Shown piece after piece: positions 19,447 to 48,959 of a stretch of DNA of 64,000 nucleotides; position 1 is the stretch's first letter, and each line of letters begins with the position of its first letter. The stretch lies in the NCBI RefSeq assembly GCF_017876495.1, contig NZ_JAGIOB010000001.1, positions 744,001 to 808,000 on the forward strand, in the 5' to 3' direction. A model generated the notes under the pieces. It searched no databases, was not told the DNA's origin, and worked only from the letters and a program-made list of their open reading frames with translations. The stretch comes from Microlunatus capsulatus. Lineage in GTDB: Bacteria; Actinomycetota; Actinomycetes; Propionibacteriales; Propionibacteriaceae. The translations under genes were made by a program, and so were the position numbers.

Positions 19447-19764
19447 GCCCCCAGACCTACCATGGCGCGCTGACAAGCCCAGCCCTCACCAGTCTCGCGT
19501 CGGAAACGCTGACGGGCGCCAGCTGAGTCCCAGCCCACCCCTCAGCATTTCCCGACCCGGCACCCGGACCGCGCGCCGCCGGAGTGAGGAGGAGCCGGTG
19601 GACACGCTCTTCCTCCACCGGCGACGACGAAGCCGGCGGGTCAGAGCGCGGTCCGCGTCCGAGCGGAGCGAGGACAGACAAGGCGCGCGACGACGAACAC
19701 GGCGGACCCGAGCGCGGTCCGCGTCCGAGCGGAGCGAGGACCAACAACACAGCAGCGAGGACCG
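19447..19764. other. Intergenic region, 318 bp, carrying repeat copy A
   Basis: It lies between the PHP start and the glutamate dehydrogenase stop. The first ~115 bp show the PHP promoter and nothing else. The rest is structured repeat copy A plus an extra half module. Frames that read through (…EEPVDTLFLHRRRR…) are not conserved in frame with the other copies, so no gene is called. Confidence 0.7.
19566..19742 (+). repeat. Structured dispersed element, copy A plus tandem half-module
   Basis: Outer arms: GGACCGCGC (19566-19574) pairs with GCGCGGTCC at about 19646-19654; GCCGCCG pairs with CGGCGG. Between them lie TGAGGAGGAG, an apical hairpin GCCGGTGGA/TCCACCGGC (19594-19602 with 19614-19622) and GACGACGAA. 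CCGAGCGGAGCGAGG closes the unit. A second copy of the 3' half (19683-19742) follows without the hairpin. Three full sister copies are at 38765-38873, 38885-38994 (both minus) and 48837-48944. Confidence 0.85.
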
Positions 19765-22700
19765 TCACACAGCCGGCAAGAGAGCCCGCGCCACCCTCAG
19801 CCCGACGGAGACCCGGGCCAGGTCGGCCCGCCCGCTGCAGATCTGCCGCAGCGTGGTGACCGAGGTGGCGACCCCGGGCACCGAGCGCTCCCAGTCCCGG
19901 ACGACCTGCTCCGGGTCGCGGGCCGGGCCCTCGCCGCGCGGCCCGGCGTGGCCGAGCGCCTCGGCGGTCAGCCCGGCGTGCACGGCGTGCAGGTCGTCGC
20001 GCAGGGCGGCGCGGGCCATCGTCTGCCAGCGGTCGGCGCGGGGCAGCTCCAGCACCCGGCCCAGCAGCCGGTCGAGGCCGAGCCGCTGGCCGAGGGTGAA
20101 GTGCACCGCGGCCACCTCCAGCAGGTCCTGCCCGGTGCGCGCGGTCGTCTGCACCACCGACAGCGCGGCGTAGGCCGGGGGCAGCACCGCGATCCGCAGC
20201 GCCAGCTCCTCGGGCACGCCGGCGTCGCGGTAGCGCCGCAGCCGCTTCTCGAAGGCCTCCCGCTCCCGGCCCGCCAGCACCTGCGGGAGGACGGCGCGGA
20301 CCTCGGTGACCCCGGCCGCCAGCTCGTCGACGGCCGCCTGGACGTCGACGCGGCGGCGCCGGTTGAGCAGCCAGCGGGTGGCCCGCTCGACGAGGGTCCG
20401 GACCTCCAGCCGCAGCGTCGTCTGGACCGCGGCGTCGACCTGGTGGTCCAGGCCGGCGACGGCCTCGTCCAGCTCGGCGGCGCCGAAGACCGCCCGGGCC
20501 GCGGCGTGGGCCAGGATCACCTCCGCCGCCGTCGCGCCGTTCTCCCCGGACAGCCGGTGGAAGCAGGTGATGCCGGCGGTGTCGACGAAGCGGTTGACCG
20601 CGACGGTGGTGATGATCTCGCGGTGCAGCCGGTGGCTCCGCATCTGCTCGGCGTACCTCTCGCGCAGGGGGCGGGGGAAGTAGCCGACGAGGTCGCGGGC
20701 GAGGTAGGGGTCGTCGGGCAGGTCGGAGCGCTCGACCTCGCTCTCCAGCACGATCTTGGTGTAGGCCAGCAGGGTCGCGAGCTCCGGCGCGGTCAGCCCG
20801 GCCTTGTTCTGCCGCCGCTGCTCCAGCTCCTCCTCCCCGGGCAGCGCCTCCAGCGCGCGGTCCAGCAGCCCCTGGTCCTCCAGCCGCTCGATCCAGTCCT
20901 CGTGCACGCCGGCCATCGAGTGGGCCTGCTGCACGCTGTTGGCCAGCGCGAGGTTCTGGGTGCGGTTGTGGGCCAGCACCAGCCGGGCGACCTCGTCGGT
21001 CATGGACGCCAGCAGCGCGTCCCGGTCGGGCAGGCTCAGCCGACCGGCGGCGACGTCGGCGGCCAGCAGGACCTTGATGTTGACCTCGTGGTCGGAGGTG
21101 TCGACGCCGGCGGAGTTGTCGATGAAGTCGGTGTTGATCCGGCCGCCCGCCGCGGCGTACTCGATCCGGCCGCGCTGGGTGAGCCCCAGGTTGCCGCCCT
21201 CGCCGACGCAGCGGGCCCGCAGCTCCCCGCCGTCGACGCGCAGGCCGTCGTTGGCCTTGTCCCCCACCTGGGCGTGGGTCTCCTGCGCCGACTTCACGTA
21301 GGTGCCGATGCCGCCGTTCCAGAGCAGGTCGACCGGCGCCTTGAGGCAGGCGCTGATCAGCTCCTGCGGGGGCAGCGCGGTGACGTCGTCGGCCAGCCCC
21401 AGCACCTCCCGGACCTGGGGGCTGACCGGGATCGACTTCAGCGTCCGCGGGTAGATCCCGCCGCCCTCGCTGAGCAGGCCTGCGTCGTAGTCGGCCCAGC
21501 TGGAGCGCGGCAGGGCGAACAGCCGCTCCCGCTCGGCGAAGCCGCGCTCGGGGTCCGGCTGCGGGTCGAGGAAGACGTGCCGGTGGTCGAAGGCGGCGAC
21601 CAGCCGGGTGTGCCGGCTCAGCAGCATGCCGTTGCCGAAGACGTCGCCGCTCATGTCGCCGATGCCGACGCAGGTGAAGTCGTCGACGGCCGGGTCGAGG
21701 CCCAGCTCGCGGAAGTGCCGAGTGACCGACTCCCAGGCGCCCCGCGCGGTGATGCCCATCGCCTTGTGGTCATAGCCGGCCGAGCCGCCGGAGGCGAAGG
21801 CGTCACCCAGCCAGAAGCCCGACTCGACCGAGATGGCGTTGGCGATGTCGGAGAACGTCGCCGTGCCCTTGTCGGCGGCTACGACGAGGTAGGGGTCGTC
21901 GCCGTCGTAGCGGACCACGTGCTCCGGGTGCACGACGGCGCCGTCGACGAGGTTGTCGGTGAGGTCCAGCAGGCTGGTGATGAACAGCTGGTAGCAGGCG
22001 ATCCCCTCGGCCAGCCAGGCGTCGCGGTCGCTGCCCGGGTCGGGCAGCTGCTTGGGGTAGAAGCCGCCCTTCGCCCCGACGGGGACGATCACGGTGTTCT
22101 TGACCATCTGCGCCTTGACCAGGCCGAGCACCTCGGTGCGGAAGTCCTCGGCGCGGTCGGACCAGCGCAGCCCGCCGCGGGCGACGGCGCCGAAGCGCAG
22201 GTGAACGCCCTCGACCCGGGGGGAGTAGACGAAGATCTCGAACTGCGGGCGGGGCTCGGGCAGGTCGGGGATCTGCCGCGGGGCCAGCTTGACCGCCAGC
22301 GCCTGCCGGCCGGGGACGTAGTGGTTGGTCCGCAGCGCCGCGGCGAGGACGGCGAGGTAGGAGCGGACGATCCGGTCGTGGTCGAGGCTGGCCACGTCGT
22401 CCAGGGCCGCGGTGACCTCGGCCGTGACGGCCTCGACGCGGGCGGCGCGGCGCTCGTCGGAGAGCTCCAGCCGCGGGTCGAAGCGGGCCTCGAACAGCGC
22501 CACCAGCCGGCGGGCCAGGTCGGTGTTGGCCGACAGCGCCTGCGCCAGGTAGGCCTGGCTGTAGGGGCTGCCGGCCTGCTGCAGGTAGCGCCCGACCGCG
22601 CGCAGGATGCTCACCTGCCGCCAGTCCAGCCCCGCGCCGAGGACGAGGGCGTTGAAGCCGTCGGACTCGCTCCGCCCGGCGTAGGAGGCGGCGAAGGCGT

Positions 22701-24639
22701 CGGTGAAGCGCTCGCGGGCCTCCAGCGTCCAGTCCCGGCGGACGGCGTCGCGGCCGCCCGGCACGCTGAGGCCGAAGTCGTAGACGAAGGCCCGGTCCCC
22801 GCGCAGGCTCAGCTCGTAGGGCCGCTCGTCGATGACGTCGACGCCCAGCCGGGTGAGGTGCGGCAGGATCTTCGACAGCGACATGGAGGCGTCGCGGCGG
22901 AAGATCTTGAGCCGCAGGTCGGCCTCGTCGTCGGTGCGGACCGGCCGGTGCACCGCCATGGACATGCCGTCGCGCTCGCCGAGGGCGCCCAGCGCGGTGA
23001 GGTCGTCGAGGGCCTGCCCGGGGGCGTAGTCCTCCTTGTAGGACTCCGGCAGCGCGCTGGCCAGCAGGCTCAGCCGCTCCGCCTGCTCCGAGGCCCCGAC
23101 GAGGTCGGCGAAGGCGTCGTCCCAGGAGCGGGTGGCCAGCGTCAGCTCCTTCTCCAGGCCCCGGACGTCGATCGCGCCGAGCGGCTGGCCGACCGGCATC
23201 CGCAGCACGAAGTGCAGCCGGGCCAGCACCGACTCGGTGACGCGCGCGGTGTAGTCGACGGTGCCGCCGCCGAGCCGGGCCAGCAGCAGGTCCTCCATCC
23301 GCCGGCGGACCGCGGTGGTGTAGCGGTCGCGGGGCAGGAAGACGAGGCAGGAGAGGTAGCGGCCGTAGGGGTCGGGCCGGACGAACATCCGGACCTGGCG
23401 GCGCTCCTTGAGGTGCGCGATCTTCTCCACCGTGCTGGCCAGCTCGTCCAGCGGGGTCTGGAACAGCTCGTCGCGGGGGTAGGTCTCCAGCACGTCGACG
23501 ACGGCCTTCCCGCCGTGGCTCTGCTCGTCGTAGCCGGTCAGCCGGAGGACGGCCTCGGTCTTCTGCCGCAGCACCGGCACCCGCGCGATGCTCTCGGAGT
23601 AGGCGCTGGAGGCGAACAGCCCGAGGAACCGGCGCTCGCCGACCACCCGGCCCTGGGCGTCGAAGGTCCGCAGGCCCAGGTAGTCCAGGTAGGCCGGCCG
23701 GTGCACCCGGGAGCGCGCGTTGTCCTTGGTGATGATCATCAGCAGGTGGTGGGTGCCGGGCTGCGGGAGCGCGTGGAAGGTGTCGGGCGCGTCCTCGTCC
23801 CCGCGCAGGATCCCCAGCCCGGTGCCGGGCACGACGGCGTAGCGCAGGTCGTCGCCCTCGCCCACGGCCACGTGCTCGCGGTAGCCGAGGAAGGTGAAGT
23901 GGTTGGCGTTGAGCCAGCCGATCAGCTCCTGGGCCAGCGCCGCCTCCTCGGTGCGGCCGCCGGTCAGCGCCGGGTCGCCGAGCAGCTCGGCGGTCTCGGC
24001 GGAGCGCTCGATCATCGGCCGCCAGTCCTCGACGGCGGCCCGGACCAGCGCGAGCACCTCCCGCAGGCCGCGGTCGAGGGCCGGGACGAGGCCATCGGGG
24101 TCCTCGGGCCGGGCGGGCGGCAGGATCTCCAGGTGCATCCAGGACTCGGCCAGCACGCCGGGCTGGGCGGCGGCCTCGCCCCGCTCGACGGCGACCAGCC
24201 CCCCGTCGGCGTCGCGGCGGACCAGGTACTGGGGGTGGAACACCTCGCGGACGCTCCAGCCCTGCCGGAGCACCTCCATGGTCAGGGAGTCGACGAGGAA
24301 GGGCTGGTCGTCGGTGACGACCTGGACGACGGTGGCGCCGCCCGCGGTCCAGCCGTCGTCGCCCTGCCGGGGGGTGCGGATGGTGACGACCGGCTCGCCG
24401 GGGCGGCGCTGCAGGGCCGCCCGGTAGTGGCTGGCGACCAGCCCCAGCAGGTCCTCGACGCTGCGGGAGTCGACGTCGACGGCATCCACGTGCCGGAAGT
24501 AGTGGTGCAGGAACACCTCGACCTGCTCCGGGTCCTGCCCCAGCTCGGCGGCCAGGGCCGCCCCGCGGGAGGCCACCGAGGCGATCTTGTCGTTCTTGTC
24601 CTGCTCGAGCTCCACGTCCGCCACCGTCACGTCCACCAT
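19765..24639 (-). CDS. gdh: NAD-specific glutamate dehydrogenase, large 180-kDa class
   Basis: About 1,624 residues, the usual size for this class (Rv2476c, Streptomyces GDH180). It oxidises glutamate to 2-oxoglutarate and ammonia with NAD. An ACT-like regulatory N-terminal half leads to the catalytic core with MVKNTVIVPVGAKGGFYPK (K about 857), GIGDMSGDVFGNGM and NGGIGTYVK, then a helical C-terminal domain. The start is ambiguous: ATG 24639 directly abuts GACGAGG, while GTG 24636 or 24630 has better spacing. In mycobacteria GarA inhibits this enzyme and PknG relieves it, and pknG is 12 kb away in this window. The gene stands alone on the minus strand. Confidence 0.95.
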   Translation of the reverse strand: MVDVTVADVELEQDKNDKIASVASRGAALAAELGQDPEQVEVFLHHYFRHVDAVDVDSRSVEDLLGLVASHYRAALQRRPGEPVVTIRTPRQGDDGWTAGGATVVQVVTDDQPFLVDSLTMEVLRQGWSVREVFHPQYLVRRDADGGLVAVERGEAAAQPGVLAESWMHLEILPPARPEDPDGLVPALDRGLREVLALVRAAVEDWRPMIERSAETAELLGDPALTGGRTEEAALAQELIGWLNANHFTFLGYREHVAVGEGDDLRYAVVPGTGLGILRGDEDAPDTFHALPQPGTHHLLMIITKDNARSRVHRPAYLDYLGLRTFDAQGRVVGERRFLGLFASSAYSESIARVPVLRQKTEAVLRLTGYDEQSHGGKAVVDVLETYPRDELFQTPLDELASTVEKIAHLKERRQVRMFVRPDPYGRYLSCLVFLPRDRYTTAVRRRMEDLLLARLGGGTVDYTARVTESVLARLHFVLRMPVGQPLGAIDVRGLEKELTLATRSWDDAFADLVGASEQAERLSLLASALPESYKEDYAPGQALDDLTALGALGERDGMSMAVHRPVRTDDEADLRLKIFRRDASMSLSKILPHLTRLGVDVIDERPYELSLRGDRAFVYDFGLSVPGGRDAVRRDWTLEARERFTDAFAASYAGRSESDGFNALVLGAGLDWRQVSILRAVGRYLQQAGSPYSQAYLAQALSANTDLARRLVALFEARFDPRLELSDERRAARVEAVTAEVTAALDDVASLDHDRIVRSYLAVLAAALRTNHYVPGRQALAVKLAPRQIPDLPEPRPQFEIFVYSPRVEGVHLRFGAVARGGLRWSDRAEDFRTEVLGLVKAQMVKNTVIVPVGAKGGFYPKQLPDPGSDRDAWLAEGIACYQLFITSLLDLTDNLVDGAVVHPEHVVRYDGDDPYLVVAADKGTATFSDIANAISVESGFWLGDAFASGGSAGYDHKAMGITARGAWESVTRHFRELGLDPAVDDFTCVGIGDMSGDVFGNGMLLSRHTRLVAAFDHRHVFLDPQPDPERGFAERERLFALPRSSWADYDAGLLSEGGGIYPRTLKSIPVSPQVREVLGLADDVTALPPQELISACLKAPVDLLWNGGIGTYVKSAQETHAQVGDKANDGLRVDGGELRARCVGEGGNLGLTQRGRIEYAAAGGRINTDFIDNSAGVDTSDHEVNIKVLLAADVAAGRLSLPDRDALLASMTDEVARLVLAHNRTQNLALANSVQQAHSMAGVHEDWIERLEDQGLLDRALEALPGEEELEQRRQNKAGLTAPELATLLAYTKIVLESEVERSDLPDDPYLARDLVGYFPRPLRERYAEQMRSHRLHREIITTVAVNRFVDTAGITCFHRLSGENGATAAEVILAHAAARAVFGAAELDEAVAGLDHQVDAAVQTTLRLEVRTLVERATRWLLNRRRRVDVQAAVDELAAGVTEVRAVLPQVLAGREREAFEKRLRRYRDAGVPEELALRIAVLPPAYAALSVVQTTARTGQDLLEVAAVHFTLGQRLGLDRLLGRVLELPRADRWQTMARAALRDDLHAVHAGLTAEALGHAGPRGEGPARDPEQVVRDWERSVPGVATSVTTLRQICSGRADLARVSVGLRVARALLPAV

Positions 24640-24680
24640 CCTCGTCGGGCGGCGCACGCCGCTGTGCGCCGGCCCTGCCG

Positions 24681-24686
24681 ACCCTA
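24681..24686 (-). promoter_or_regulatory. -10 element for glutamate dehydrogenase
   Basis: TAGGGT on the minus strand, about 42 nt before the start region, with a GACGAGG ribosome-binding site between. The region 24640-24774 is a divergent promoter region shared with the DUF2505 gene. Confidence 0.45.
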
Positions 24687-24774
24687 GTACCGCGCGGTGC
24701 GCGCGGGGCCCCTCGGCGCGGGTCGGCGGGCGGCGCAGCGGGGCAGCGCGGGGGTCGCTGCCATCATGGGGCGC

Positions 24775-25245
24775 ATGGACATCACCACGCGCCTCGAGTT
24801 CGCGGCCGCCCCGCCCGAGGTCTACGCCATGCTGACCGACGCCCAGTACCTCGACGAGGTGTGCCGGGCCACGGAGTCGACCAGCTACGACGTCGACGTC
24901 GAGGGCTCCACCACCCGCACCACCCGCTCCTTCCCGGCGCCGGACGCGGTGGCCCGCTTCGTGGGCGGCACGCTGACGGTGAGCGAGCAGACGGTCTGGG
25001 GCGCGGCCGGACCCGACGGCGCCCGCACCGGGGACCTCGAGATGACGGTCAAGGGCCAGCCCGTGAGCATGAAGGGCCGGCTGTCGCTGGCCCCCAGCGG
25101 CGCCGGCACCGTCGTCCAGCTGACCGGGGACCTCAAGGTCTCCATCCCGCTGCTGGGCAAGAAGCTGGAGCAGTCGTCCGCGCCCGCCGTGCTGGCCGGT
25201 TTCGGCAAGCAGCAGGAGGTCGGCAGCCGCTGGCTGGCCCGATGA
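24775..25245 (+). CDS. DUF2505 protein (SRPBCC-like fold)
   Basis: 156 residues from the ATG at 24775; ATG 24766 in the same frame is possible, but a CATCAT hexamer at 24762-24767 favours leaderless use of 24775. It starts DITTRLEFAAAPPEVYAMLTD and has TVKGQPVSMKGRLSL and a C-terminal ISIPLLGKK-type segment, the pattern of DUF2505. These have a START/Bet v1-like lipid-binding fold of unknown ligand. It is probably co-transcribed with corA 13 nt downstream. Confidence 0.85.
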   Translation: MDITTRLEFAAAPPEVYAMLTDAQYLDEVCRATESTSYDVDVEGSTTRTTRSFPAPDAVARFVGGTLTVSEQTVWGAAGPDGARTGDLEMTVKGQPVSMKGRLSLAPSGAGTVVQLTGDLKVSIPLLGKKLEQSSAPAVLAGFGKQQEVGSRWLAR

Positions 25246-25258
25246 CGGGACCGCTGGC

Positions 25259-26305: not shown

Positions 26306-26318
26306 CCGCGGTGAGCGC

Positions 26319-26377
26319 GCGAGTGCTGAGGAACCGCACGTCCGGGGCTCCCGGGACGACGGGTTCTCAGCACTCGC
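26319..26377. terminator. Bidirectional terminator between corA and ku
   Basis: GCGAGTGCTGAG-g-AACC (26319-26335) pairs with GGTT-CTCAGCACTCGC (26362-26377): 16 pairs with one bulge and a 26-nt loop. It is the only structure between these convergent genes; there is no T-tract. Confidence 0.75.
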
Positions 26378-26387
26378 CGCTCAGGCG

Positions 26388-27194: not shown

Positions 27195-27305
27195 GGGCTC
27201 AGTCTGCCCGATCCCGCCGCCGGGGGAACCGCCCCTGGCCAGGGGAGTTGCGGCGGGACGGCGCCCGGGCCGCTCCGGGGCCGCCGGAGGACTCAGCCGG
27301 AGGGC

Positions 27306-29488: not shown

Positions 29489-29534
29489 GCGTCGCCCCTC
29501 TCCTCCGTCGGGCTCCTCGGCGGATCCGGTGCTC

Positions 29535-37501: not shown

Positions 37502-38725
37502 TCAGCCCGCCTGCCGCAGGGCCGGACCCAGCAGGTCCGCGAGGTCCCCGACCGCAGGCGCGGCGACGCCGCCCAGACCGAGCCAGCCGGCCAGCGCCAC
37601 CAGCTCGGCGGCCAGCTCCTCGGCCACCTCCGGCGTGCCCTGCCCCGGCTCGGCCCAGGCCCCGTGGACGCGGAGCACCCCGGCGGCCCGGTCGGCCTTG
37701 AGGTCCACCCGGGCGACGAAGGCGTCGTCGAGGAGGAACGGGTAGACGTAGTAGCCGTGCACCCGCTTCGCCTGCGGCACGTAGATCTCGATGCGGTAGC
37801 GGAAGCCGAACAGCTCCTCCAGCCGGGCCCGCTCGAAGACCATCGAGTCGAACGGGCTGAGCAGCGCCCGGGCCCGGACCCGGCGGGGCACCCGAGCCTC
37901 GTGCCACAGGTACAGCGGACGACCGGTCCCGCCGCGCACCGTCACCGGCAGCAGCCGGCCCTCCTCGACCAGCTCGGCCACCGCTTGCCGCGTCATCTCC
38001 GGCCGGGTGCGGAAGTAGTCGCGCAGGCTCAGCTCGCTGGCCACGCCGAGGGCCTGCGCCGCCCGGGCGACCAGGCCGCGCACCGACTCCTCGGGCGTGG
38101 GCGTCGGCCGGGCCAGCACGGCAGCTGGCAGCACCCGCTCGGGCAGGTCGTAGACCCGCTCGAACTGGCTGTTGCGCCACGCCGAGGTGACCTCGCCGCA
38201 GTAGAACAACCACTCCAGCACCGTCTTCACCGAGGACCAGTTCCACCCCCACTGGCTGCGGTCCCGCTCCTCGGCCACCTCCAGCTGGCGCGCGCTGACC
38301 GGCCCCCGGTCGGCGACCTGCTGCCGGACGTGCTCGACGAGGCCGGGCTGCTCCCGCGCCGCGCGCTCCACGTTCGACCAGACGTCGCGGTAGGCCGCCT
38401 GCGCCCGGAACCGGAGCAGCGGCTGGAGGTTCACGTCGAGCAGGCTCGCCGCGTGCCCCCAGTACTCGTAGAGCCGGCGCGGGGCGCGGTGCGCCGCCCG
38501 TTCCAGCAGCGTCGTGTCGTAGCCGCCCAGCCGGGAGTACAGCGGCACGAAGTGCGCCCGGGTGACGACGTTGACGGAGTCGATCTGGAACTGGCCCAGC
38601 CGGGTGGTGACGGCCTGGACGTCGCGCACCCCCACCGGCCGCTCCGGGCGCGGGACCGCCAGCCCCTGCGCCGCCACGGCGACACGGCGGGCCTCGGCGG
38701 CGGTGAGGGTCTCGCGGACGGCCAT
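37502..38725 (-). CDS. YcaQ/AlkX-like winged-helix DNA glycosylase
   Basis: 407 residues. It belongs to the HTH_42 family of DNA glycosylases that unhook crosslinks and remove bulky alkyl bases. The catalytic QxD-type motif is seen in GQFQIDSVNVVTRAHFVPLYSRLG (QID). Other family marks are YEYWGHAASLL and a C-terminal LLSPFDSMVFERARLEELFGF...YYVYPFLL. The ATG lies 6 nt after TACCGT. The gene and its repeat-laden upstream region sit between secA and hpf, which are closer in other actinomycetes, so this may be an insertion. Confidence 0.88.
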   Translation of the reverse strand: MAVRETLTAAEARRVAVAAQGLAVPRPERPVGVRDVQAVTTRLGQFQIDSVNVVTRAHFVPLYSRLGGYDTTLLERAAHRAPRRLYEYWGHAASLLDVNLQPLLRFRAQAAYRDVWSNVERAAREQPGLVEHVRQQVADRGPVSARQLEVAEERDRSQWGWNWSSVKTVLEWLFYCGEVTSAWRNSQFERVYDLPERVLPAAVLARPTPTPEESVRGLVARAAQALGVASELSLRDYFRTRPEMTRQAVAELVEEGRLLPVTVRGGTGRPLYLWHEARVPRRVRARALLSPFDSMVFERARLEELFGFRYRIEIYVPQAKRVHGYYVYPFLLDDAFVARVDLKADRAAGVLRVHGAWAEPGQGTPEVAEELAAELVALAGWLGLGGVAAPAVGDLADLLGPALRQAG

Positions 38726-38764: not shown

Positions 38765-38873
38765 CCTCGCTCCGCTCGGACGCGGACCGCGCGCTGGCCC
38801 GCCGCTTTCGTCGTCGCCCGCGAACGAAAGAACGTGTTCGCGGGCTCCTCCTCAACGCGGCGGCGCGCGGTCC
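38765..38873 (-). repeat. Structured dispersed element, copy C
   Basis: Read on the minus strand: GGACCGCGC...GCGCGGTCC outer arms, TGAGGAGGAG, apical 10-bp hairpin GCCCGCGAAC/GTTCGCGGGC with loop ACGTTCTTTC (plus coordinates 38816-38845), GACGACGAA, then CCGAGCGGAGCGAGG. The apical stem sequence differs wholly from copy A but is perfectly paired. Confidence 0.85.
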
Positions 38874-38884
38874 GTTCTGATGGC

Positions 38885-38994
38885 CCTCGCTCCGCTCGGG
38901 CTGCGGACCGCGCTCTAGCCCGCCGTGTTCGTCGTCGCGGGCAGACGGAGAAGCGTGTCTGCCCGCTCCTCCTCATCACGGCGGCGCGCGGTCC
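38885..38994 (-). repeat. Structured dispersed element, copy D
   Basis: Same plan as copy C on the minus strand. Apical 10-bp hairpin GCGGGCAGAC/GTCTGCCCGC with loop ACGCTTCTCC (plus coordinates 38937-38966). It ends with the tail GGCCATCAGAAC, which is also seen after copy B. Confidence 0.85.
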
Positions 38995-40044: not shown

Positions 40045-40060
40045 GCCGGTCCCCGGACGC

Positions 40061-40097: not shown

Positions 40098-40110
40098 GGT
40101 CAGGTCGGGA

Positions 40111-40746: not shown

Positions 40747-40997
40747 CAGATCCTCCATCGGTGGTGGTGGGCCCGCCCCGCGGAACTCAGGGACCGGGCC
40801 GGTGCACCAGGCCCGGGACCTCCGACCGGCTGCCGCCCCGATCGGCAGCGGTCGGGCGGAGCGGAGACGACAACGGCGCCGGCCGCGCCCGGACCCGGTG
40901 TTCCCGGGTCCGAGGGTGCTCGCGGTGGCGCCATGACGTGACGTTAGTCCTGCCTCCCGGCGGCCGGAAGGGCGGGGGTCGGACCTTCACGGACTTA

Positions 40998-41756: not shown

Positions 41757-41819
41757 CGGACCAGTCTCCGGCGCCGGGCGGGTGGCCGGGTGGACCGGCG
41801 GGCGATCTGTGGACGGCGG

Positions 41820-43595
41820 TCAGCCCGGGTAGGCGATCGCCTGGGTGTCGTCGAGGATCTCCAGCCACCGGTTGCCCTCGTCGCGGTACGCCGCCCCGTC
41901 GCGGGCCAGGACGAGCGTGATCGCCGTCTGGGTCCGCAGCAGCACCGCGAGCTCGACCGCCTCCCAGTCGCTGGTCTTAAGCTGGGTCTGCACCGTCGAG
42001 GCGTCCACGCTGACCGCGGTCTGGCCGTACGAGCCGTCCGCCCGGTCCGCGCCGAGCACCACGAGCTCGGTCGCGCTCGTCCACGCCAGGTCGCGGGCGT
42101 CGATCACCGCCGCGTCGGTCAGCGGGGAGTCCGTCTCGAGCAGCCGCCAGCCGTCGACCACCAGCTTCGGCGAGCGGACGACGCGCGCCGTCGCCAGCTG
42201 CGTCTTGCCGGCGGACTTCATGATGAGGGCCATCCGGGCCCCGTCGGGGGAGATGCGGAAGGCCACGACGCGGCCGTGGGAGAAGACGTCCGAGGCGCTG
42301 ATCGCCCGGGTCTCGCCGTCCGGGTTCGTCACCCACATCCGCTGCTGACCGTTCTGCACGCCCACCGCGAACAGCTCGCCGGCCCGCGTGAACTGCGGCC
42401 GGAGCAGGCTGGTCACCCCGTCCAGGACGGTGGTCAGCCTCCCGCCCGTCACCGCGGTGCGGCGCAGCACCGTGTCCTCGTCGGTGACCACGGCGACCTC
42501 GGTGTTGGTCACGGTGGCGGCCAAGGAGGAGATGGAGTAACGGCCCTCGCCCAGCGGACCCGGGAAGGGGTCCATCGCGGGCACGTCGGTGTTGACGGTG
42601 ACCTTCTGCAGGACGCTCTTCGGGCCGCGCACGGCGTAGAGCTGCTCGGACGGCACGAAGGGCACGGGGTTGAGCTCGCTGCTGATGCTCTCCAGGGGTA
42701 CGGCCAGGTCGGTGGAGTCGCTCTGCGGGACGCGGAAGGGCTGACCTCCCACCTGCAGGAGCACCTTCTTGACCCCGGTCACCTGCTGCAGCGTGTAGAC
42801 CAGCTGGGCGGCGAGGCTGGCCCGCTCCGGGTCGGTGGTGCGCTGGACCTCGTCGCTCAGCGGCACCTGCGCGACCCCGTTGACGATGGTCACCGAGTCG
42901 ACGCTCAGCTTGGTGCCCGAGGGCACGGCGGTCTGGACCGCCGGGGAGAGCCAGTCGGACGGACCCGCCAGCAGTGCCTGCACGAGGGCCGAGGCGATGT
43001 TGCCCGGCGCCCGCAGGTCAGGGAGGTAGATGGGCTCGGGCACCAGGGCCCCGGTCCCGCCCGGGTAGTAGAGGTTGTAGCTCCGGTAGAGCCGCTCGAA
43101 GGAGCTGTCCCGGACGAGCAGACCGGGCAGCGGGTTCGAGATCCGCCACTCACCGCCCTCGCGCACCAGCTCGAAGGTGTAGTCCAGCGGGAGCTTGGCA
43201 GCCTTGAAGGTGTTCCTCTTGTCGAGACTGCCGACGCGCTGCCCCTGCAGGCGGACCGAGCCCTCGACGTCGGGGCGCTTGTTCGGCTTCACGGAGTAGA
43301 TGACGACGCCCTGGTCGGTGGTCCACGTGCTGGCGGCGTCGCGGGTCAGGAACTGCCGCGCGACGGCATAGCCGGACTGGTAGTTGGCGTTGGCCCGGAG
43401 GAACCCCTCGACCACCTCGCGGCCGGTGTCCCCGGGGTACGGCGGGGCGACCTCGACGTTCACGCAGCTCTGGCAGGTGGGCTGCTGGCCCTCCACCTTG
43501 TCGACCGGACCCGAGGTCGGGATGCTGACGCAGCCGGTCAGGGCGGCCAGCAGCAGGACCAGGAGGAGCGCGGCCGGCCCGCGGCGGGTGCTCAC
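41820..43595 (-). CDS. lpqB: Lipoprotein LpqB of the MtrAB system
   Basis: 591 residues. Signal peptide with lipobox LTGC (Cys22). A GerMN domain lies in the middle (LLAGPSDWLSPAVQTAVPSGTKL...VNGVAQVPLSDEV) and a beta-propeller-like C-terminal half follows (AAVTNTEVAVVTDEDTVLRRT, HGRVVAFRISPDGARMALI). LpqB binds the extracellular part of MtrB and tunes MtrA phosphorylation. The GTG start overlaps the mtrB stop by 4 bases. Confidence 0.95.
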   Translation of the reverse strand: MSTRRGPAALLLVLLLAALTGCVSIPTSGPVDKVEGQQPTCQSCVNVEVAPPYPGDTGREVVEGFLRANANYQSGYAVARQFLTRDAASTWTTDQGVVIYSVKPNKRPDVEGSVRLQGQRVGSLDKRNTFKAAKLPLDYTFELVREGGEWRISNPLPGLLVRDSSFERLYRSYNLYYPGGTGALVPEPIYLPDLRAPGNIASALVQALLAGPSDWLSPAVQTAVPSGTKLSVDSVTIVNGVAQVPLSDEVQRTTDPERASLAAQLVYTLQQVTGVKKVLLQVGGQPFRVPQSDSTDLAVPLESISSELNPVPFVPSEQLYAVRGPKSVLQKVTVNTDVPAMDPFPGPLGEGRYSISSLAATVTNTEVAVVTDEDTVLRRTAVTGGRLTTVLDGVTSLLRPQFTRAGELFAVGVQNGQQRMWVTNPDGETRAISASDVFSHGRVVAFRISPDGARMALIMKSAGKTQLATARVVRSPKLVVDGWRLLETDSPLTDAAVIDARDLAWTSATELVVLGADRADGSYGQTAVSVDASTVQTQLKTSDWEAVELAVLLRTQTAITLVLARDGAAYRDEGNRWLEILDDTQAIAYPG

Positions 43596-45325
43596 GAACC
43601 GCTCCGGCCCTGGTCGGCGCCGGTGGAGGCGAGCGGGCCGCCCAGCACGAGGGTCTCGACGGTGCTGCTGTCCCCGACCTCGAGGGCACCGGTGGTGTCA
43701 GCCGACACCGCCTCAGCCTCGGCGCGGGCCGGGTCGCTGGGCCCGAGGTAGTCGCGGGGCACCATGGGCAGCGGGGAGCTCTGCAGGATGGTGCCGGCCT
43801 TCCGGGGCAGGGTGAGCCGGAACTGCGCGCCCTGGCCCGGCCGGCCCCAGGCCGTCAGCCAGCCGCCGTGCAGGTTGGCGTCCTCCATCGAGATCGACAG
43901 CCCGAGCCCGGTCCCGCCGACGGTGCGGGCCCGCGCCGGGTCGGCGCGCCAGAAGCGGTGGAACACCTGCTTGGCCTGGCTGGCCTCGAACCCGACGCCG
44001 TGGTCGCGGACGGCCACCGCGACAGCGTCGTCGTCGCTGGCGACCAGGATCTCGATCGGCTGCGTCTCCGCGTGCTCGATGGCGTTGACGAGCAGGTTCC
44101 GCAGGATGCGCTCGATCCGCCGGACGTCCACCTCCGCAGTGGCCTCCGCGGGCGCGAGGATCACGACCGTCGTCCGGTTCGCGGTGGCCAGCGGGGCGTT
44201 CGCCTCGACGACCCGGGCGACGACGTCGCGCAGGTCGACCGCGCTGAGCGCCAGCTCGGCGGCACCGGCGTCGAAGCGGGAGATCTCCAGCAGGTCAGTC
44301 AGCAGGGCCTCGAAGCGGTCCAGCTCGTTCTGCAGCAGCTCGGTGGAGCGGGCGGCGATGGGGTCGAAGTCCTCGCGTGCGTCGTGCAGCACCTCGGCGG
44401 CCATCCGCACGGTGGTCAGCGGGGTGCGCAGCTCGTGCGAGACGTCGGAGACGAAGCGCTGCTGGACAGCGGACAGCTCCTCGAGGGTGTTGATCTGCTT
44501 CTGCAGCTCGCTGGCCATGTAGTTCATCGAGACGGCCAGCCGGGCCAGGTCGTCGGTGCCGCGGACCTGCATCCGGTCGTGCAGGTTGCCCGACGCCAGG
44601 CTCTCCGCCGCCCGCCGGGCCGCCCGCACCGGCGTCACCACCTGCCGGCTGACCAGCGCGGCGATGAGGGTGAGCAGCACGATGAGGATCGCCCCCGTGG
44701 TGACGACCGCGTTCCGCAGCACCTGGAGCGTCTGCACCTCCTGGGTGAGCGGGAAGACCAGGTACATCTGGTAACGACCGGCGCCCGGCAGGGTGAGCGT
44801 CGCTCCGGCTGCGAGCCCGGGCTCGGGAGCCTCGTCGTCGAGGTAGACCACCTCGGTCGGGGTGATCAGCAGGTCGCTGCTCCGCTCCACCTGGCGCTGC
44901 AGGGCGGCCGGGATGCTCTCCCGGGCGACGGTGTCGGCCGAGAAGGTGAGCCCTCGGCCGAGGATCACCACCTCGTACTGGTTCGTCCCGCCCGTGCGGT
45001 TGGCGAAGCCGTCGGCCAGGTCGTACAGCAGCTTGTAGACGTCCGCCTCGTCACCGCTGAGGTTGGCGTTGTTCAGCGTCTGCTGCGCGCGGTCCACCGC
45101 CTGCCGAGCCTCGTTCTCCGCCACCTCCTGCTTGCTGCGCATCACCCCGGAGGTGGCCTGCTGCATGAGCAGGAACCCGCTGAGCACCAGCACCACGAGC
45201 GAGGCGACCAGCACCGAGGCGATCACCCGGAACGGCAGAGAACGCCACCACAGGGCGGCCGGCAGCCTCCACCAGGCCTCGGCGGGCTGACGGCTGGGGA
45301 CGGCGGACGGACCCGGCGCGCTCAC
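43592..45325 (-). CDS. mtrB: Sensor histidine kinase MtrB
   Basis: 577 residues. Two membrane helices (about 28-54 and 205-230) flank an extracellular sensor of about 150 residues. HAMP, H-box SHELRTPLTTV (His about 297), N-box NLLVNAIEHAE and G-box DHGVGFE follow, with a C-terminal tail rich in Ala/Ser/Asp. It controls cell division, wall metabolism and osmotic response through MtrA. It begins 32 nt after mtrA and overlaps lpqB. Confidence 0.96.
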   Translation of the reverse strand: MSAPGPSAVPSRQPAEAWWRLPAALWWRSLPFRVIASVLVASLVVLVLSGFLLMQQATSGVMRSKQEVAENEARQAVDRAQQTLNNANLSGDEADVYKLLYDLADGFANRTGGTNQYEVVILGRGLTFSADTVARESIPAALQRQVERSSDLLITPTEVVYLDDEAPEPGLAAGATLTLPGAGRYQMYLVFPLTQEVQTLQVLRNAVVTTGAILIVLLTLIAALVSRQVVTPVRAARRAAESLASGNLHDRMQVRGTDDLARLAVSMNYMASELQKQINTLEELSAVQQRFVSDVSHELRTPLTTVRMAAEVLHDAREDFDPIAARSTELLQNELDRFEALLTDLLEISRFDAGAAELALSAVDLRDVVARVVEANAPLATANRTTVVILAPAEATAEVDVRRIERILRNLLVNAIEHAETQPIEILVASDDDAVAVAVRDHGVGFEASQAKQVFHRFWRADPARARTVGGTGLGLSISMEDANLHGGWLTAWGRPGQGAQFRLTLPRKAGTILQSSPLPMVPRDYLGPSDPARAEAEAVSADTTGALEVGDSSTVETLVLGGPLASTGADQGRSGS

Positions 45326-45357
45326 GCCGTCAGGCCGCCCTCGGGACGTGGGTCATC

Positions 45358-46080
45358 TCAGGCCCGGACGGTCTCGCCGGCCTTGTAGCCGATGCCGCGC
45401 ACGGTGACGACGATCTCCGGGTGCTCCGGGTCGCGCTCGATCTTGGAGCGCAGCCGCTGCACGTGGACGTTGACCAAGCGGGTGTCGGCGGCGTGCCGGT
45501 AGCCCCAGACCTGCTCCAGCAGCACCTCGCGGCTGAAGACCTGCCAGGGCCGGCGGGCCAGCGCCAGCAGGAGGTCGAACTCCAGCGGCGTCAGCTGGAT
45601 CGGCGTCCCGTCACGCTTGACCGAGTGGCCGTCAACGCTGATCGAGAGGTCGCCGATCTGCAGCGTCTCGGTCTCGGTCTCCTCGGGCGTGGGCACCCGG
45701 CGCAGCCGCGTCTTGATCCGGGCGACGAGCTCCTTGGCCTTGAAGGGCTTGGCCACGTAGTCGTCGGCCCCGGCCTCGAGGCCCTCGACGACGTCGATGG
45801 TGTCGGTCTTGGCCGTCAGCATGATGATCGGGACGCCGGAGTCCTGGCGGATGTCGCGGCACACGTCGACGCCGTCGCGGCCCGGCAGCATGAGGTCGAG
45901 CAGCACGAGGTCGGGCCGGGACTCGCGGAAGATGGCGAGAGCCTTGTCCCCGTAGGCGCACCAGATGGGCTCGTAGCCCTCGTTGCGCAGGACGATGGAC
46001 AGCATCTCGGCGAGCGCCGCGTCGTCGTCCACCACGAGCACCCGGCTCCGCGTGCCCGTATTCCTGGCCGTTTCCGACAC
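45358..46080 (-). CDS. mtrA: Response regulator MtrA (OmpR family)
   Basis: 240 residues. The receiver has acidic pocket VVDDD, phospho-acceptor D62 (LLDLMLPG), LTAKTD and PFKAKELVARIK. The C-terminal winged helix is QLTPLEFDLLLALARRPWQVFSREVLLEQVWGY...DTRLVNVHVQRLRSKIE. It controls division and cell-wall genes. The GTG start has AGGA upstream and a TAAGAT -10 about 56 nt away. A perfect 16-bp palindrome lies in the leader. Confidence 0.97.
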   Translation of the reverse strand: MSETARNTGTRSRVLVVDDDAALAEMLSIVLRNEGYEPIWCAYGDKALAIFRESRPDLVLLDLMLPGRDGVDVCRDIRQDSGVPIIMLTAKTDTIDVVEGLEAGADDYVAKPFKAKELVARIKTRLRRVPTPEETETETLQIGDLSISVDGHSVKRDGTPIQLTPLEFDLLLALARRPWQVFSREVLLEQVWGYRHAADTRLVNVHVQRLRSKIERDPEHPEIVVTVRGIGYKAGETVRA

Positions 46081-46100
46081 GATTTCCTGCCCTCCGTCTT

Positions 46101-46141
46101 ACCGGCCGCGGCCGGTGCTTTCCCCGCGCGCCCTGATCTTA
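46101..46141 (-). promoter_or_regulatory. mtrA promoter and palindrome
   Basis: -10 TAAGAT (minus, 46136-46141) with TGACCC 17 nt upstream. In the leader lies the perfect palindrome ACCGGCCGCGGCCGGT (46101-46116), an operator or a hairpin in the message. Confidence 0.5.
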
Positions 46142-46222
46142 TGCAATGGCTGTTCACCGGGTCACGGATCGGGCGGCGCGGCGGCTGCTCCCCACCCCCG
46201 TGAGGACGAGCGGGAGACCCGC

Positions 46223-46792
46223 TCAGTTCAGGTCCGGGTCCTCCACCCAGGTCGAGAAGAAGGCCGTCTCCCCCGGCTGACGGCGCAGCACCGTGCGCCA
46301 CAGATCCAGCGGCCGACGGCCGAAGACGTCGTCGTAGCGGGCCTCGGCGAGGTGCCAGCGGCCCTGGGCGATCTCGGTCTGCAGCTGCCCGGCGGACCAG
46401 CCCGCGTAGCCCGCGAAGATCCGCAGGTCGCGGTAGGCGCCGGAGACGATCTCGATCGGCGTGTCGAGGTGCAGCAGCCCCACGGTGTCGAAGAGCGGCC
46501 GCCAGCCCGGGGGCTCCTCGCCGGGCTCGTCGACGCTGGCCAGGCAGATGGCCCCGTTGGGCGAGACGGGGCCGCCGTGGAACAGCAGCCGGGGCTCCGA
46601 CACCGAGCCGACCCAGTCGGGCAGCACCGAGGCCAAGGGGGTCTGGGAGATCTCGTTGAGGATGACGCCGAGCGCGCCGTCCTCGTCGCAGTCCAGGACC
46701 AGCACCACGGTCTGGTCGAAGACGCCGTCGGAGATCAGCACGCTGGAGACCAGCAGGCTGCCGGGGCTCGGGCTGCCCGGGGGCCGCGTCAC
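46223..46792 (-). CDS. YqgE/AlgH-family protein (DUF179)
   Basis: 189 residues from the GTG at 46792, overlapping the VanZ-like stop. It has SPSPGSLLVSSVLISDGVFDQTVVLVLDCDEDGALGVILNEIS, HGGPVSPN and a late FAGYAGWSAGQLQTEIAQGRWHL, all typical of DUF179. Function is unknown in actinomycetes. It is the last gene of the malic enzyme-VanZ-YqgE unit and precedes mtrA. Confidence 0.9.
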   Translation of the reverse strand: MTRPPGSPSPGSLLVSSVLISDGVFDQTVVLVLDCDEDGALGVILNEISQTPLASVLPDWVGSVSEPRLLFHGGPVSPNGAICLASVDEPGEEPPGWRPLFDTVGLLHLDTPIEIVSGAYRDLRIFAGYAGWSAGQLQTEIAQGRWHLAEARYDDVFGRRPLDLWRTVLRRQPGETAFFSTWVEDPDLN

Positions 46793-47289
46793 GTCGCCTC
46801 CGCCGGGGTCGGGCGTCGCCCGTCGCCGTGCCCCGCGCGGGACCGGCGCACCGCGCGGCGGAGCAGCGCCGTCGCGACCACCACGCCGAGGGCGATCCCG
46901 ACGGCGTCGGCCAGCACGTCCCGCGGGTCGCCGCTGCGGCCGGTGTAGAAGAGGTGCTGCACGACCTCGCTGAGCACGGCGTGCGCGCCGAACACCGCCA
47001 CGACCACCACCAGCGTCGGCCGCGACGGCGACCGGCCCTGCGCCAGGCGTCGCAGCCCCAGCGCCAGCACGAGCAGCCCGACCGGCAGCGCGAACCCGGC
47101 GGCGTGCTCCAGCTTGTCGGCGTTCGGGAACCAGCCCGGGGTGGGCGGGCCGGTCACCCGGTAGAGACCCCACAGCTGCGCCGCGACCGCGAGCCCGGCC
47201 AGCACGGCCACCACCCGCCAGCTCGACCCGGCCCGCGTCCCCCGGTCGGCCCCCACCCGGGAGCCGGCCCCCGTCCAACGGTCAGACAT
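46789..47289 (-). CDS. VanZ-family membrane protein
   Basis: 166 residues. Four hydrophobic segments (VVAVLAGLAVAAQLWGLY, AAGFALPVGLLVLALGL, TLVVVVAVFGAHAVLSE, LADAVGIALGVVVATALL) carry the VanZ pattern NADKLEHAAGF and SEVVQHLFYTGRSGDPRDVLADAVG. VanZ itself gives low-level teicoplanin resistance; most members are of unknown role. Its start overlaps the malic enzyme stop by 8 bases, and its stop overlaps the YqgE start by 4. Confidence 0.88.
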   Translation of the reverse strand: MSDRWTGAGSRVGADRGTRAGSSWRVVAVLAGLAVAAQLWGLYRVTGPPTPGWFPNADKLEHAAGFALPVGLLVLALGLRRLAQGRSPSRPTLVVVVAVFGAHAVLSEVVQHLFYTGRSGDPRDVLADAVGIALGVVVATALLRRAVRRSRAGHGDGRRPTPAEAT

Positions 47290-48715
47290 CGTCCTGGACG
47301 GCGACGTCGGGGTCGACGGGCAGCTCGGCGGGGCCGCCGGCGGCCCGCCGGACGGCGGTGGCGACGGCGGTGTGCACGTCGGCGTTGAAGACGCTGGGGG
47401 TGATGTAGGCGGCGTTCAGCTGGTCGTCGGTGACGACGCCGGCCAGCGCGCGGGCGGCGGCCAGCAGCATCGTCGTGGTGATCTCCTTCGACCGGGCGTC
47501 GATGAGGCCGCGGAACACCCCCGGGAAGGCGAGCACGTTGTTGATCTGGTTCGGGAAGTCCGAGCGGCCGGTGGCGACCACGGCGGCGTGCTTCATCGCC
47601 TCCATGGGGTCGACCTCGGGCTCGGGGTTGGCCAGGGCGAAGACGATCGCGTCGTCGGCCATCCCGGCGATGTCGTCGCCGGTCAGCAGGTTGGGCGCCG
47701 ACACCCCGATGAAGACGTCGGCGCCGACGACGGCCTCGGTCAGCGAGCCGGTGACATCGAGGGCGTTGGTGTGCTCGGCCAGCCAGGCCAGCTCGCCGCT
47801 GAGCCCGGCGCGGCCGCGGTGGACGACGCCGTCGATGTCGGAGACGACGATGTGCTGCACGCCGGCGGCCAGCAGCAGCTTGATGATCGCGGTGCCGGCC
47901 GCGCCGGCCCCGGACATCACGACGCGGACCTCGGCGATGCTCTTGTCGACGACCCGGAGCGCGTTGTAGAGCGCGGCGAGCACGACGATGGCGGTGCCGT
48001 GCTGGTCGTCGTGGAAGACGGGGATGTCCAGCTGCTCGCGCAGCCGGGCCTCCACCTCGAAGCAGCGGGGCGCCGAGATGTCCTCGAGGTTGATGCCGGC
48101 GAAGCCGGGCGCGACGGCCTTGACCACGGCGACGATCTCGTCGACGTCCTGGGTGTCCAGGCACAGCGGCCAGGCGTCGATGTCGCCGAACCGCTTGAAC
48201 AGCGCGGCCTTGCCCTCCATCACCGGCAGCGCGGCCTCCGGGCCGATGTTGCCCAGCCCGAGGACGGCCGACCCGTCGGTGACGACGGCGATCGAGTTCC
48301 GCTTGGAGGTCAGCCGGCGGGCGTCCTCCTTGTTCTTGGCGATCGCCAGGCACACCCGCGCGACACCCGGGGTGTAGACCATCGAGAGGTCGTCGCGGTT
48401 GCGGATCGGGTGCTTGGAGCGCATCTCGATCTTGCCGCCGAGGTGCATGAGGAAGGTGCGGTCGGAGACCTTGCCGATGGTGACGCCGGGCACGGCGCGC
48501 ATGATCTCGACGAGCTCGTCGGCGTGGTCGGTGTCCCGCGCCGCGCAGGTCACGTCGATCTGCAGGCGCTCATGGCCGGACGCGGTGACGTCGAGGGCTG
48601 TGACGCTGCCACCCGCGCCTTCGACGGCCGAGGTCAGGGCGGAGACCGAGCCGCCGCCGGCGGGGACCTCCAGCCGCACCGTGATCGAGTACGAGACGGA
48701 CGGGAGGGCGCTCAC
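47282..48715 (-). CDS. NAD-dependent malic enzyme
   Basis: 477 residues from the GTG at 48715, which is 10 nt after GAGAGG; the ATG at 48724 abuts that site. An N-terminal ACT-like domain (SVSYSITVRLEVPAGGGSVSALTSAV) precedes the malic enzyme domains: YTPGVARVCLAIAKN, SAVLGLGNIGPEAALPVMEGKAALFK, FHDDQHGTAIVVLAALYNAL, the nucleotide fold VVMSGAGAAGTAI and SDFPNQINNVLAFPGVFRG. It converts malate to pyruvate and CO2. The order malic enzyme-vanZ-yqgE forms an overlapping operon. Confidence 0.95.
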   Translation of the reverse strand: MSALPSVSYSITVRLEVPAGGGSVSALTSAVEGAGGSVTALDVTASGHERLQIDVTCAARDTDHADELVEIMRAVPGVTIGKVSDRTFLMHLGGKIEMRSKHPIRNRDDLSMVYTPGVARVCLAIAKNKEDARRLTSKRNSIAVVTDGSAVLGLGNIGPEAALPVMEGKAALFKRFGDIDAWPLCLDTQDVDEIVAVVKAVAPGFAGINLEDISAPRCFEVEARLREQLDIPVFHDDQHGTAIVVLAALYNALRVVDKSIAEVRVVMSGAGAAGTAIIKLLLAAGVQHIVVSDIDGVVHRGRAGLSGELAWLAEHTNALDVTGSLTEAVVGADVFIGVSAPNLLTGDDIAGMADDAIVFALANPEPEVDPMEAMKHAAVVATGRSDFPNQINNVLAFPGVFRGLIDARSKEITTTMLLAAARALAGVVTDDQLNAAYITPSVFNADVHTAVATAVRRAAGGPAELPVDPDVAVQDDV

Positions 48716-48959
48716 GCCCCGCATCCTCTCACGGTCCTCCCCGGACGCACCCCCCGTGACAGCACGGGACCGGCGTGGCCGCCCCGTACCTGCGGTGGGC
48801 CGGTCCTGACGCGACGAACAGCCCGACCCGGCGCCCGGACCGCGCGCCGCCGGAGTGAGGAGGAGCCGGTGGACACGCTCTTCGTCCACCGGCGACTACG
48901 AAGCCGGCGGGCCGGAGCGCGGTCCGCGGCCGAGCGGAGCGAGGCCCATCAGAACCTGC
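48716..48959. other. Intergenic region, 244 bp, repeat copy B
   Basis: It lies between malic enzyme and the vWA gene stop. GC-rich promoter region of malic enzyme, then repeat copy B, which ends 5 nt before the vWA stop codon. Confidence 0.7.
48837..48944 (+). repeat. Structured dispersed element, copy B
   Basis: GGACCGCGC/GCGCGGTCC outer arms, TGAGGAGGAG, apical 10-bp hairpin GCCGGTGGAC/GTCCACCGGC (48865-48874 with 48884-48893; loop ACGCTCTTC), GACTACGAA, CCGAGCGGAGCGAGG. The tail CCCATCAGAAC matches copy D. Confidence 0.85.

What the first reader, a model, noticed from the sequence alone, without database searches (positions are those of the whole stretch)
19566..48944. A dispersed structured element with compensatory stem changes (four copies)
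Copies lie at 19566-19675 (+), 38765-38873 (-), 38885-38994 (-) and 48837-48944 (+). All share outer arms GGACCGCGC/GCGCGGTCC, a TGAGGAGGAG stretch, an apical hairpin, GACNACGAA and CCGAGCGGAGCGAGG. The apical stem has three quite different sequences (GCCGGTGGAC, GCCCGCGAAC, GCGGGCAGAC), each with its exact complement on the other side, while the loop start ACGYT and the flanks stay fixed. This is what selection for RNA or cruciform structure looks like. Reading frames differ between copies, so it is not a conserved peptide. Two tails (CATCAGAAC and GGCAGACAA) recur. It may be a novel REP-like mobile hairpin or a structured RNA family.
Basis: seen in the sequence. Interest (0 to 1): 0.85.

Follow-up and report, generated by a model that had tools for sequence, protein, structure and literature searches.

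The report
Mobile hairpin repeats at gene ends
About 45 copies of a folded DNA element of roughly 110 bases are scattered through this bacterium's genome, often right beside the ends of genes; their letters change but the folded shape, including unusual G-A pairings, is kept, so the shape itself seems to matter, though what moves or uses it is unknown.

Summary
The four copies are real, and a fifth, truncated one lies at 19683-19739. They belong to a family with 45 model hits in this genome, found in 13 of 20 sampled genomes of the genus (Microlunatus group) and, much diverged, in another family of the same order. Pairing is kept while letters change: in 88 distinct rows, 32 of 34 pairs have changes on both sides and 94.9% of cells pair, against 70.2% when shuffled. 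The 3' tail is a mini-hairpin CC-GA-GC-GNA-GC-GA-GG, often a few bases from a stop codon. Some sites are empty, or filled in the opposite orientation, in a relative. No Y1 transposase was found in any of 20 genus genomes; Rfam has no match; there is no U-tract. Best reading: a new lineage-specific family of non-autonomous, REP-like hairpin repeats kept foldable by selection. The mobiliser, and whether DNA or RNA is the folded form, remain unknown.

The parts
19566..19673 (+). copy 1, full length (hairpin plus tail mini-hairpin)
   Evidence: model hit 19558-19682, 126.4 bits
19566..19574 (+). copy 1 outer stem, 5' arm; 3' arm 19646-19654
   Evidence: covariation of helix 1
19576..19582 (+). copy 1 middle stem, 5' arm; 3' arm 19633-19639
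   Evidence: helix 2
19586..19594 (+). copy 1 tandem G.A helix, 5' strand (GAGGAGGAG); 3' strand 19623-19631 (GACGACGAA)
   Evidence: spacer pairs are helices 3 and 4
19594..19622 (+). copy 1 apical stem and pyrimidine-rich loop ACGCTCTTC (loop 19604-19612); the loop-closing pair is C-C in this copy
   Evidence: helix 5
19658..19674 (+). copy 1 tail mini-hairpin T-CC-GA-GC-GGA-GC-GA-GG-A
   Evidence: helices 6-7, helix 6
19683..19739 (+). fifth copy, 5'-truncated
   Evidence: (763687-763746 of the genome)
38765..38873 (-). copy 2, full length, in tandem with copy 3 (period about 120 bp)
38885..38994 (-). copy 3, full length
   Evidence: (genome 782876-783002); not listed separately
48837..48944 (+). 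copy 4, full length; tail 15 nt from the stop codon of the gene at 48960-50165 (-); no recognisable copy at this site in relative G011
48960..50165 (-). neighbour: VWA/CoxE-like protein gene, 3' end facing the tail of copy 4
19765..24639 (-). neighbour: NAD-glutamate dehydrogenase gene, 3' end facing the tail of copy 1 and the truncated copy
37502..38725 (-). neighbour: AlkZ-like DNA glycosylase gene; its start faces the tail of copy 2

Best explanation
A lineage-specific family of small, non-coding, non-autonomous interspersed repeats of the REP/MITE-like kind. Each unit is one about 90-nt imperfect hairpin (outer stem, middle stem, a helix of up to three tandem G.A/A.G mismatch steps, apical stem, 9-10 nt pyrimidine-rich loop) followed by a GNA-loop mini-hairpin tail. 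Shown: dispersal, patchy copy number, conservation of the fold with changing letters, the tandem-GA helix, frequent placement of the tail end next to stop codons, tandem and truncated copies, and some empty or oppositely oriented sites in a relative. Inferred: only copies that fold are recognised, probably as a single strand of DNA, by an unidentified enzyme or binding protein supplied in trans. That keeps the fold under selection while the letters drift. Insertions survive where they do not break genes, chiefly just past stop codons.
For: 45 hits in own genome, 26-117 in six relatives of the genus, 16 in one, 2-5 in five, none in seven. 32 of 34 pairs with double changes in 88 distinct rows, 0 of 500 shuffles reaching any of the five measures, slid controls 28-41% paired against 94.9%. 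Tandem GA steps: 58 of 81 rows have three, against 1.1 in letter shuffles; the GAGGA/GACGA and GACGA/GAGGA types swap together in 45 and 24 of 81, same type on both sides in 1, other in 11. Folded strand = GA strand: G-T 64 against A-C 25 of 2859 cells; the + strand is more stable in 77 of 80 (RNA parameters) and 75 of 80 (DNA). In relative G011, of 14 sites queried (picked because no shared copy had been seen), 3 have no recognisable copy (L066, L080, L082) and 3 carry an oppositely oriented copy or tail (L077, L079, L094); a further opposite copy faces L087. Tandem arrays and truncated copies. The GNA mini-hairpin is exceptionally stable as DNA (PMC4686876, passages read).
Against: No mobilising enzyme was found: Y1 transposase in 0 of 20 genomes, and reverse transcriptase presence does not follow copy number. 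No general target-site duplication in 69 copies (the excess over shuffles comes from tandem arrays plus one 14-bp case that the orthologue lacks). Whether the G011 empty sites are losses or never-filled is not decided by an outgroup; 7 of the 14 sites queried are unclear and 1 is shared. Thirteen of 21 G011 stretches examined match an own-genome locus of the family, and one site (rplK-rplA) is shared by G000, G005, G014 and G019, so many copies are old. The stop-codon adjacency is not explained by survival alone. Shared ancestry, and alignment to the model's own structure, inflate the covariation counts.
Confidence: 0.5

Rival explanations
1. The element works at the RNA or transcription level at gene ends: as a terminator, a shield against antisense read-through, or an mRNA 3'-end stabiliser. 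It was spread by recombination and kept for that use.
For: Tail 17 nt or less from a stop codon in 19 of 24 own copies whose right-hand gene ends towards it and in 16 of 25 in other genomes. In another bacterial family, inverted pairs sit between convergent genes with outward tails near stop codons, for example 5 and 22 nt at L203, 1 (weakly called gene) and 0 nt at L213. A copy lies between rplK and rplA in four species.
Against: No U-tract on either strand, 0 of 78. In the mRNA of the gene whose stop abuts the tail, the element is read as the weaker strand, with U-C instead of G-A mismatches. Simple terminators would not need the tandem-GA helix, the constant loop and the tail. Some copies lie upstream of genes.
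Confidence: 0.22
2. A DNA-architecture or protein-binding element (as BIMEs are for gyrase, recalled): a host protein binds the extruded hairpin, and selection maintains the fold.
For: Conserved non-Watson-Crick features (GA helix, GNA tail, loop) look like a binding surface. Median spacing about 100 kb, intergenic, strand-specific.
Against: Seven of 20 genomes of the same genus have no hit, so no essential chromosome function. Orientation relative to replication is not significant (26 anti, 14 co, 3 skipped, P 0.08, origin assumed at recF).
Confidence: 0.15
3. A dispersed family of trans-acting structured RNAs (small RNAs), each copy transcribed from the + strand.
For: Fold conserved on one strand with some G-U; constant pyrimidine-rich loop.
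Against: No Rfam match; few G-U cells (64 of 2859); truncated copies. Promoters were not tested.
Confidence: 0.06
4. Pairing is maintained by a mutational process (one arm copied from the other by template switching, plus gene conversion between copies), not by selection.
For: Three of six G000 copies, and three of six G011 copies, are closer to a paralogue than to the orthologue. One copy, L029, has replaced its GA helix by a perfect stem.
Against: Template switching would erase the G.A mismatches, yet 74 of 81 rows keep two or three tandem GA steps, with the spacer pairs swapped in register.
Confidence: 0.07

Closest known systems
REP/BIME and REPIN sequences (GTAG and CGTC superfamilies), PMC3733652 (abstract and passages read)
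   Same: Dispersed extragenic palindromes, mostly downstream of genes, also as dimers in opposite orientation; CGTC REPs likewise lack a dedicated transposase
   Different: About 110 bp two-hairpin unit with a tandem-GA helix; no GTAG/CGTC tag; no Y1 transposase in the 20 genus genomes searched
CIR, ERIC, RUP, Correia and YPAL small mobile repeats, PMC2229807 (passages read)
   Same: About 100-170 bp, mostly intergenic, folded; CIR and YPAL without a known mover in the passages read; YPAL mobility inferred from empty and filled sites
   Different: No regular duplication found here; strand-specific tandem-GA helix. Sequence comparison with these families was not run
bcr1 of the Bacillus cereus group (search listing only; length and compensatory changes recalled, not read)
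   Same: Dispersed repeat with conserved secondary structure (recalled)
   Different: Different host phylum and architecture
Integron attC sites (recalled; IS1111 targeting of attC read in passages of PMC11187229)
   Same: Sit just after stop codons, and the strand antisense to the gene folds as a hairpin (recalled)
   Different: No pair of RYYYAAC/GTTRRRY boxes in the end profiles, although many right ends read ..AAC; neighbours examined are ordinary chromosomal genes, not cassettes
d(GCGNAGC) GNA-loop mini-hairpin (PMC4686876, passages read)
   Same: Tail core GC-GNA-GC is this motif
   Different: Here extended by a tandem G.A step and C-G pairs, in a genomic repeat

Membership tests
REP mobilised by RAYT (Y1 transposase) | Y1_Tnp (PF01797) in the genome | tested here: not met
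   0 of 20 genomes of the genus, own included; 5 of 14 control genomes positive
REP mobilised by RAYT (Y1 transposase) | GTAG or CGTC tag at one end, 20-40 bp palindrome | tested here: not met
   no such conserved tag in the end profiles of 79 copies; length about 110
MITE | terminal inverted repeats and short target-site duplication | tested here: inconclusive
   outer arms are inverted repeats but part of the hairpin; no general duplication in 69 copies
Rfam families | match at gathering score or better than chance | tested here: not met
   0 in the window; the only match for copy 4 up to E 10 is MIR8622, E 3
Intrinsic terminator | hairpin followed by U-tract | tested here: not met
   0 of 78 copies with TTTT in the 12 nt after the structure on either strand
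Integron attC | pair of RYYYAAC / GTTRRRY end boxes | tested here: not met
   end profiles of 79 copies..AAC common at the right end, no GTT box at the left; integrase not searched
Retroelement | reverse transcriptase tracking copy number | tested here: not met
   PF00078 in 12 of 20; absent from G018 (60 copies), present in copy-free G006, G009, G010, G012, G013
Structured RNA family | transcript from the folded strand | not testable with these tools
   no expression data

The most novel reading that the evidence does not exclude
A new class of mobile nucleic-acid element: a triple tandem-G.A hairpin with a GNA mini-hairpin tail, recognised as folded single-stranded DNA (or RNA) by an unknown, non-Y1 enzyme, and delivered in a fixed orientation to the very ends of genes, next to stop codons.
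Probability: 0.2. Interest if true: 0.82.

Novelty: new variant of a known kind. Interest (0 to 1): 0.58.

Why it matters
Dispersed palindromic repeats usually have either a Y1 transposase or no known mover. This family keeps an elaborate, testable fold across two bacterial families while most stem letters change, lacks the usual enzyme in the genus, and often ends almost at a stop codon in a fixed orientation. If the reading is right, it offers a clean system for asking what selects for a folded repeat and how such repeats find gene ends. The tandem-GA helix and GNA tail also give a structural signature that can be searched for in other genomes.

Tried and rejected
Y1/RAYT mobilisation: rejected for the genus, 0 of 20. 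Retrotransposition, suggested by 5'-truncated copies: not supported, because reverse transcriptase does not follow copy number and several 'truncated' copies are internal deletions that keep both outer arms. Target-site duplications: none general in 69 copies. Viral origin: the four IMG/VR pattern matches are not elements (0 model hits); no match in the phage collection; on plasmids one 36-base match only, and none for the f3 form. An 'autonomous' 2-kb form in G224 proved to be an IS110-family insertion sequence between the two arms of the repeat: a user of the repeat, not shown to be its mover. Replication-strand bias: 26 anti, 14 co, 3 skipped, P 0.08, origin assumed at recF; confounded by gene strand. 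The phylum sample gave 1 of 396, the own genome only, with strict filters, so absence there is weak. The one scan of the named genome collection used a strict pattern and gave 3 stretches. Literature, judged from titles and abstract starts in the listings: tail motif, 25 of 28 papers listed, unrelated; Nocardioides and REP, 1 paper, unrelated; tandem G-A and repeats, 15 of 164 listed; Friedmanniella/Microlunatus, 8 of 2523 listed, nothing relevant. So 'not in print' is not claimed.

Full report
What is there. BLAST with copy 4 finds 44 matches in the 4.41-Mb genome; a covariance model from 23 copies finds 43 at E 0.1 or better, and a second model from 102 rows finds 45 at E 0.001 or better. 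The window lies at 744001-808000 of that genome.

Anatomy. Reading the + strand of an element: outer stem of 9-10 bp; one unpaired base on the 5' side and about 6 on the 3' side (RYCAGA); middle stem of about 7 bp; a one-base bulge; a helix in which 5' GAGGAGGAG lies opposite 3' GACGACGAA, that is, three G.A/A.G tandem steps separated by single G-C pairs; a 10-bp apical stem; the loop ACGYTYTTC; then a short linker and the tail mini-hairpin N-CC-GA-GC-GNA-GC-GA-GG-N, whose outer N:N pair covaries (T-A, C-G, A-T, G-C). After the tail comes CAGA, fairly well kept, then letters that are only weakly kept. The G.A pairing itself is inferred from sequence; no tool used here models it.

Covariation. 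In alignment A1 (23 rows), 20 of 34 pairs change on both sides and 96.3% of cells pair. In A2 (102 rows, 88 distinct), 32 of 34 change on both sides; 583 cells have a double change against 146.4 in shuffles; sliding the 3' partner by 1-3 columns drops pairing from 94.9% to 28-41%. A3 (72 rows, 70 distinct, overlapping with A2) agrees: 28 of 34, 95.0%. A2 and A3 were aligned to the model's own structure, which favours it, and related copies are counted many times, so the shuffle result is not a probability. Six orthologous pairs of copies between G000 and G011, whose flanks are about 82-94% identical, give a view closer to events. Of 204 pair comparisons, 167 are unchanged, 21 changed on both sides and still pair, 3 changed on one side and still pair, 11 changed so that one species lacks the pair, and 2 have gaps. 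Three of the six G000 copies and three of the six G011 copies are closer to a paralogue than to the orthologue, so ectopic copying probably also takes place.

The tandem-GA helix. Of 81 distinct long rows, 58 have three tandem GA steps, 16 two and 7 one; letter shuffles give 1.1, 15.0 and 42.2, with 22.8 having none. The spacer pairs flip together: GAGGA/GACGA in 45, GACGA/GAGGA in 24, same type on both sides in 1, other in 11. Related rows, including array members, are counted apart. L021 has an extra step on both strands and L027 a two-pair spacer on both (my reading). One copy, L029, has replaced the helix by a perfect stem. Five of the seven one-step rows come from low-copy genomes G005, G014 and G017. 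The GA strand is the folded one: G-T mispairs 64 against A-C 25, and the + strand is more stable in 77 of 80 with RNA and 75 of 80 with DNA parameters. G-T cells are only 2% of cells, which seems few for an RNA (my judgement, no control run).

Distribution. With model R1, 13 of 57 genomes have hits, all of them among the 20 of the same genus (own included), and 0 of 37 others. With R2, copy numbers in the 20 are 117, 74, 65, 60, 45 (own), 43, 26, 16, then 2-5 in five and none in seven. In an order-wide sample with strict filters, 14 of 293 genomes have hits, 9 in the genus and 5 in another family, f3. In those five genomes there are 2-8 hits each at E 0.01 or better; the 19 printed mostly show the same plan: outer stem, middle stem, GA steps, GNA tail. 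By a simple motif test 16 of 24 f3 copies have an inverted partner; in G224 and G288 the two arms of a pair are of different types, with tails facing outward. A phylum sample gave 1 of 396, the own genome.

Place relative to genes. Genes were called with a simple codon-score finder trained on the window. For the 30 best-scoring own-genome copies, the right-hand gene runs towards the element in 24 (P 0.0014 for an even split), and in 19 of these 24 the tail hairpin ends 17 nt or less from its stop codon; left-hand genes running towards the element number 16, none closer than 28 nt to the outer stem. Measured from the outer stem, the right-hand minimum is about 24, so the two minima are alike, but 19 of 24 right-hand against 3 of 16 left-hand stops lie within about 37 nt. 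Of 40 copies in other genomes of the genus that I held, 25 of 35 with a called right-hand gene show the same orientation (P 0.017), 16 of 25 at 17 nt or less (counts include orthologues and array members). In 24 f3 copies, 19 have a right-hand gene ending towards them: 5 at 0-7 nt (L170, L205, L208, L210, L213) and 14 at 22-105 nt; on the other side, 11 of the 16 copies with an inverted partner have a left-hand stop 1-11 nt from the partner's tail motif (G224 and G288 share orthologous sites). Some copies abut start codons instead (L077 before recF, L044, L117).

Turnover. Of 21 G011 stretches examined, 13 match an own-genome locus of the family. Fourteen own-genome sites, picked because no shared copy had been seen, were queried in G011, so no rate can be drawn from them. 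No recognisable copy: L066, L080 (copy 4), L082. Opposite-orientation copy or tail next to the other gene's stop: L077, L079, L094. Shared: L086. Not clear: L054, L071, L081, L091 (possible opposite tail remnant), L095, L096, L097 (part of its output was cut). At the L087 site G011 has an opposite, shortened copy. A copy between rplK and rplA is present in G000, G005, G014 and G019. So the family holds old and younger copies; whether the empty sites are unfilled or emptied was not polarised. Tandem arrays occur (window pair, about 120 bp apart; five copies at 135 bp in G011). No general target-site duplication was found.

What it is not. No Rfam match. No Y1 transposase in any of 20 genus genomes. 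No U-tract in 78 of 78. No reverse-transcriptase correlation. An IS110-family element sits between the arms of two repeat pairs in G224 that are uninterrupted in G288; IS1111-family elements are reported to target REPs and attC sites (PMC11187229, passages), so this looks like the same habit.

How it most likely works. I read the family as non-autonomous repeats whose foldability is selected because a trans-acting factor must recognise the folded GA strand. The GNA mini-hairpin core is exceptionally stable as DNA (PMC4686876, passages), which with the scarcity of G-U favours a DNA fold; this is inference. The stop-codon rule is the least explained fact: survival of harmless insertions explains intergenic placement but not the fixed orientation and near-contact. 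The main rival is a function at gene ends in transcription or RNA. Closest known kinds are REPs without a known transposase (PMC3733652, abstract and passages) and small repeats such as CIR and YPAL (PMC2229807, passages).

Noticed in passing
window 611-627, 710-744, 8784-8818, 12584-12618; also flanks of L095, L096, L077: A second repeat, CCTTCGACRRGCTCAGG, 7 matches with up to 1 mismatch against 0.00 expected, often as close inverted pairs; read from the other strand it can also form a mini-hairpin with a tandem GA step (my reading). Short G011 matches to the L095 flank appear to be further copies.
   Followed up: partly
L256 about 872-2517 and L257 about 952-2538 (G224): A 99% identical IS110-family insertion sequence (PF01548, PF02371) between the arms of two inverted repeat pairs; uninterrupted in G288. 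It may use the repeat as its target.
   Followed up: partly
G011 3298477-3299140 (L098), and L043: Five tandem copies with 135-bp period, and short arrays of the 3' tail alone.
   Followed up: no
L090, L051, L052, L065 (G000, G019, G014, G005): A copy in the rplK-rplA spacer of the nusG-rplK-rplA operon in four species, with very different letters but the same general fold.
   Followed up: partly
L029 (G000 981364-981493): A copy whose GA helix has become a long perfect stem, as template-switch correction would produce.
   Followed up: no
L084 (G000 1053767-1053895): A 14-bp direct repeat AGCCCCGCCCCCGC flanks this copy, but the orthologous copy in G011 lacks it.
   Followed up: partly
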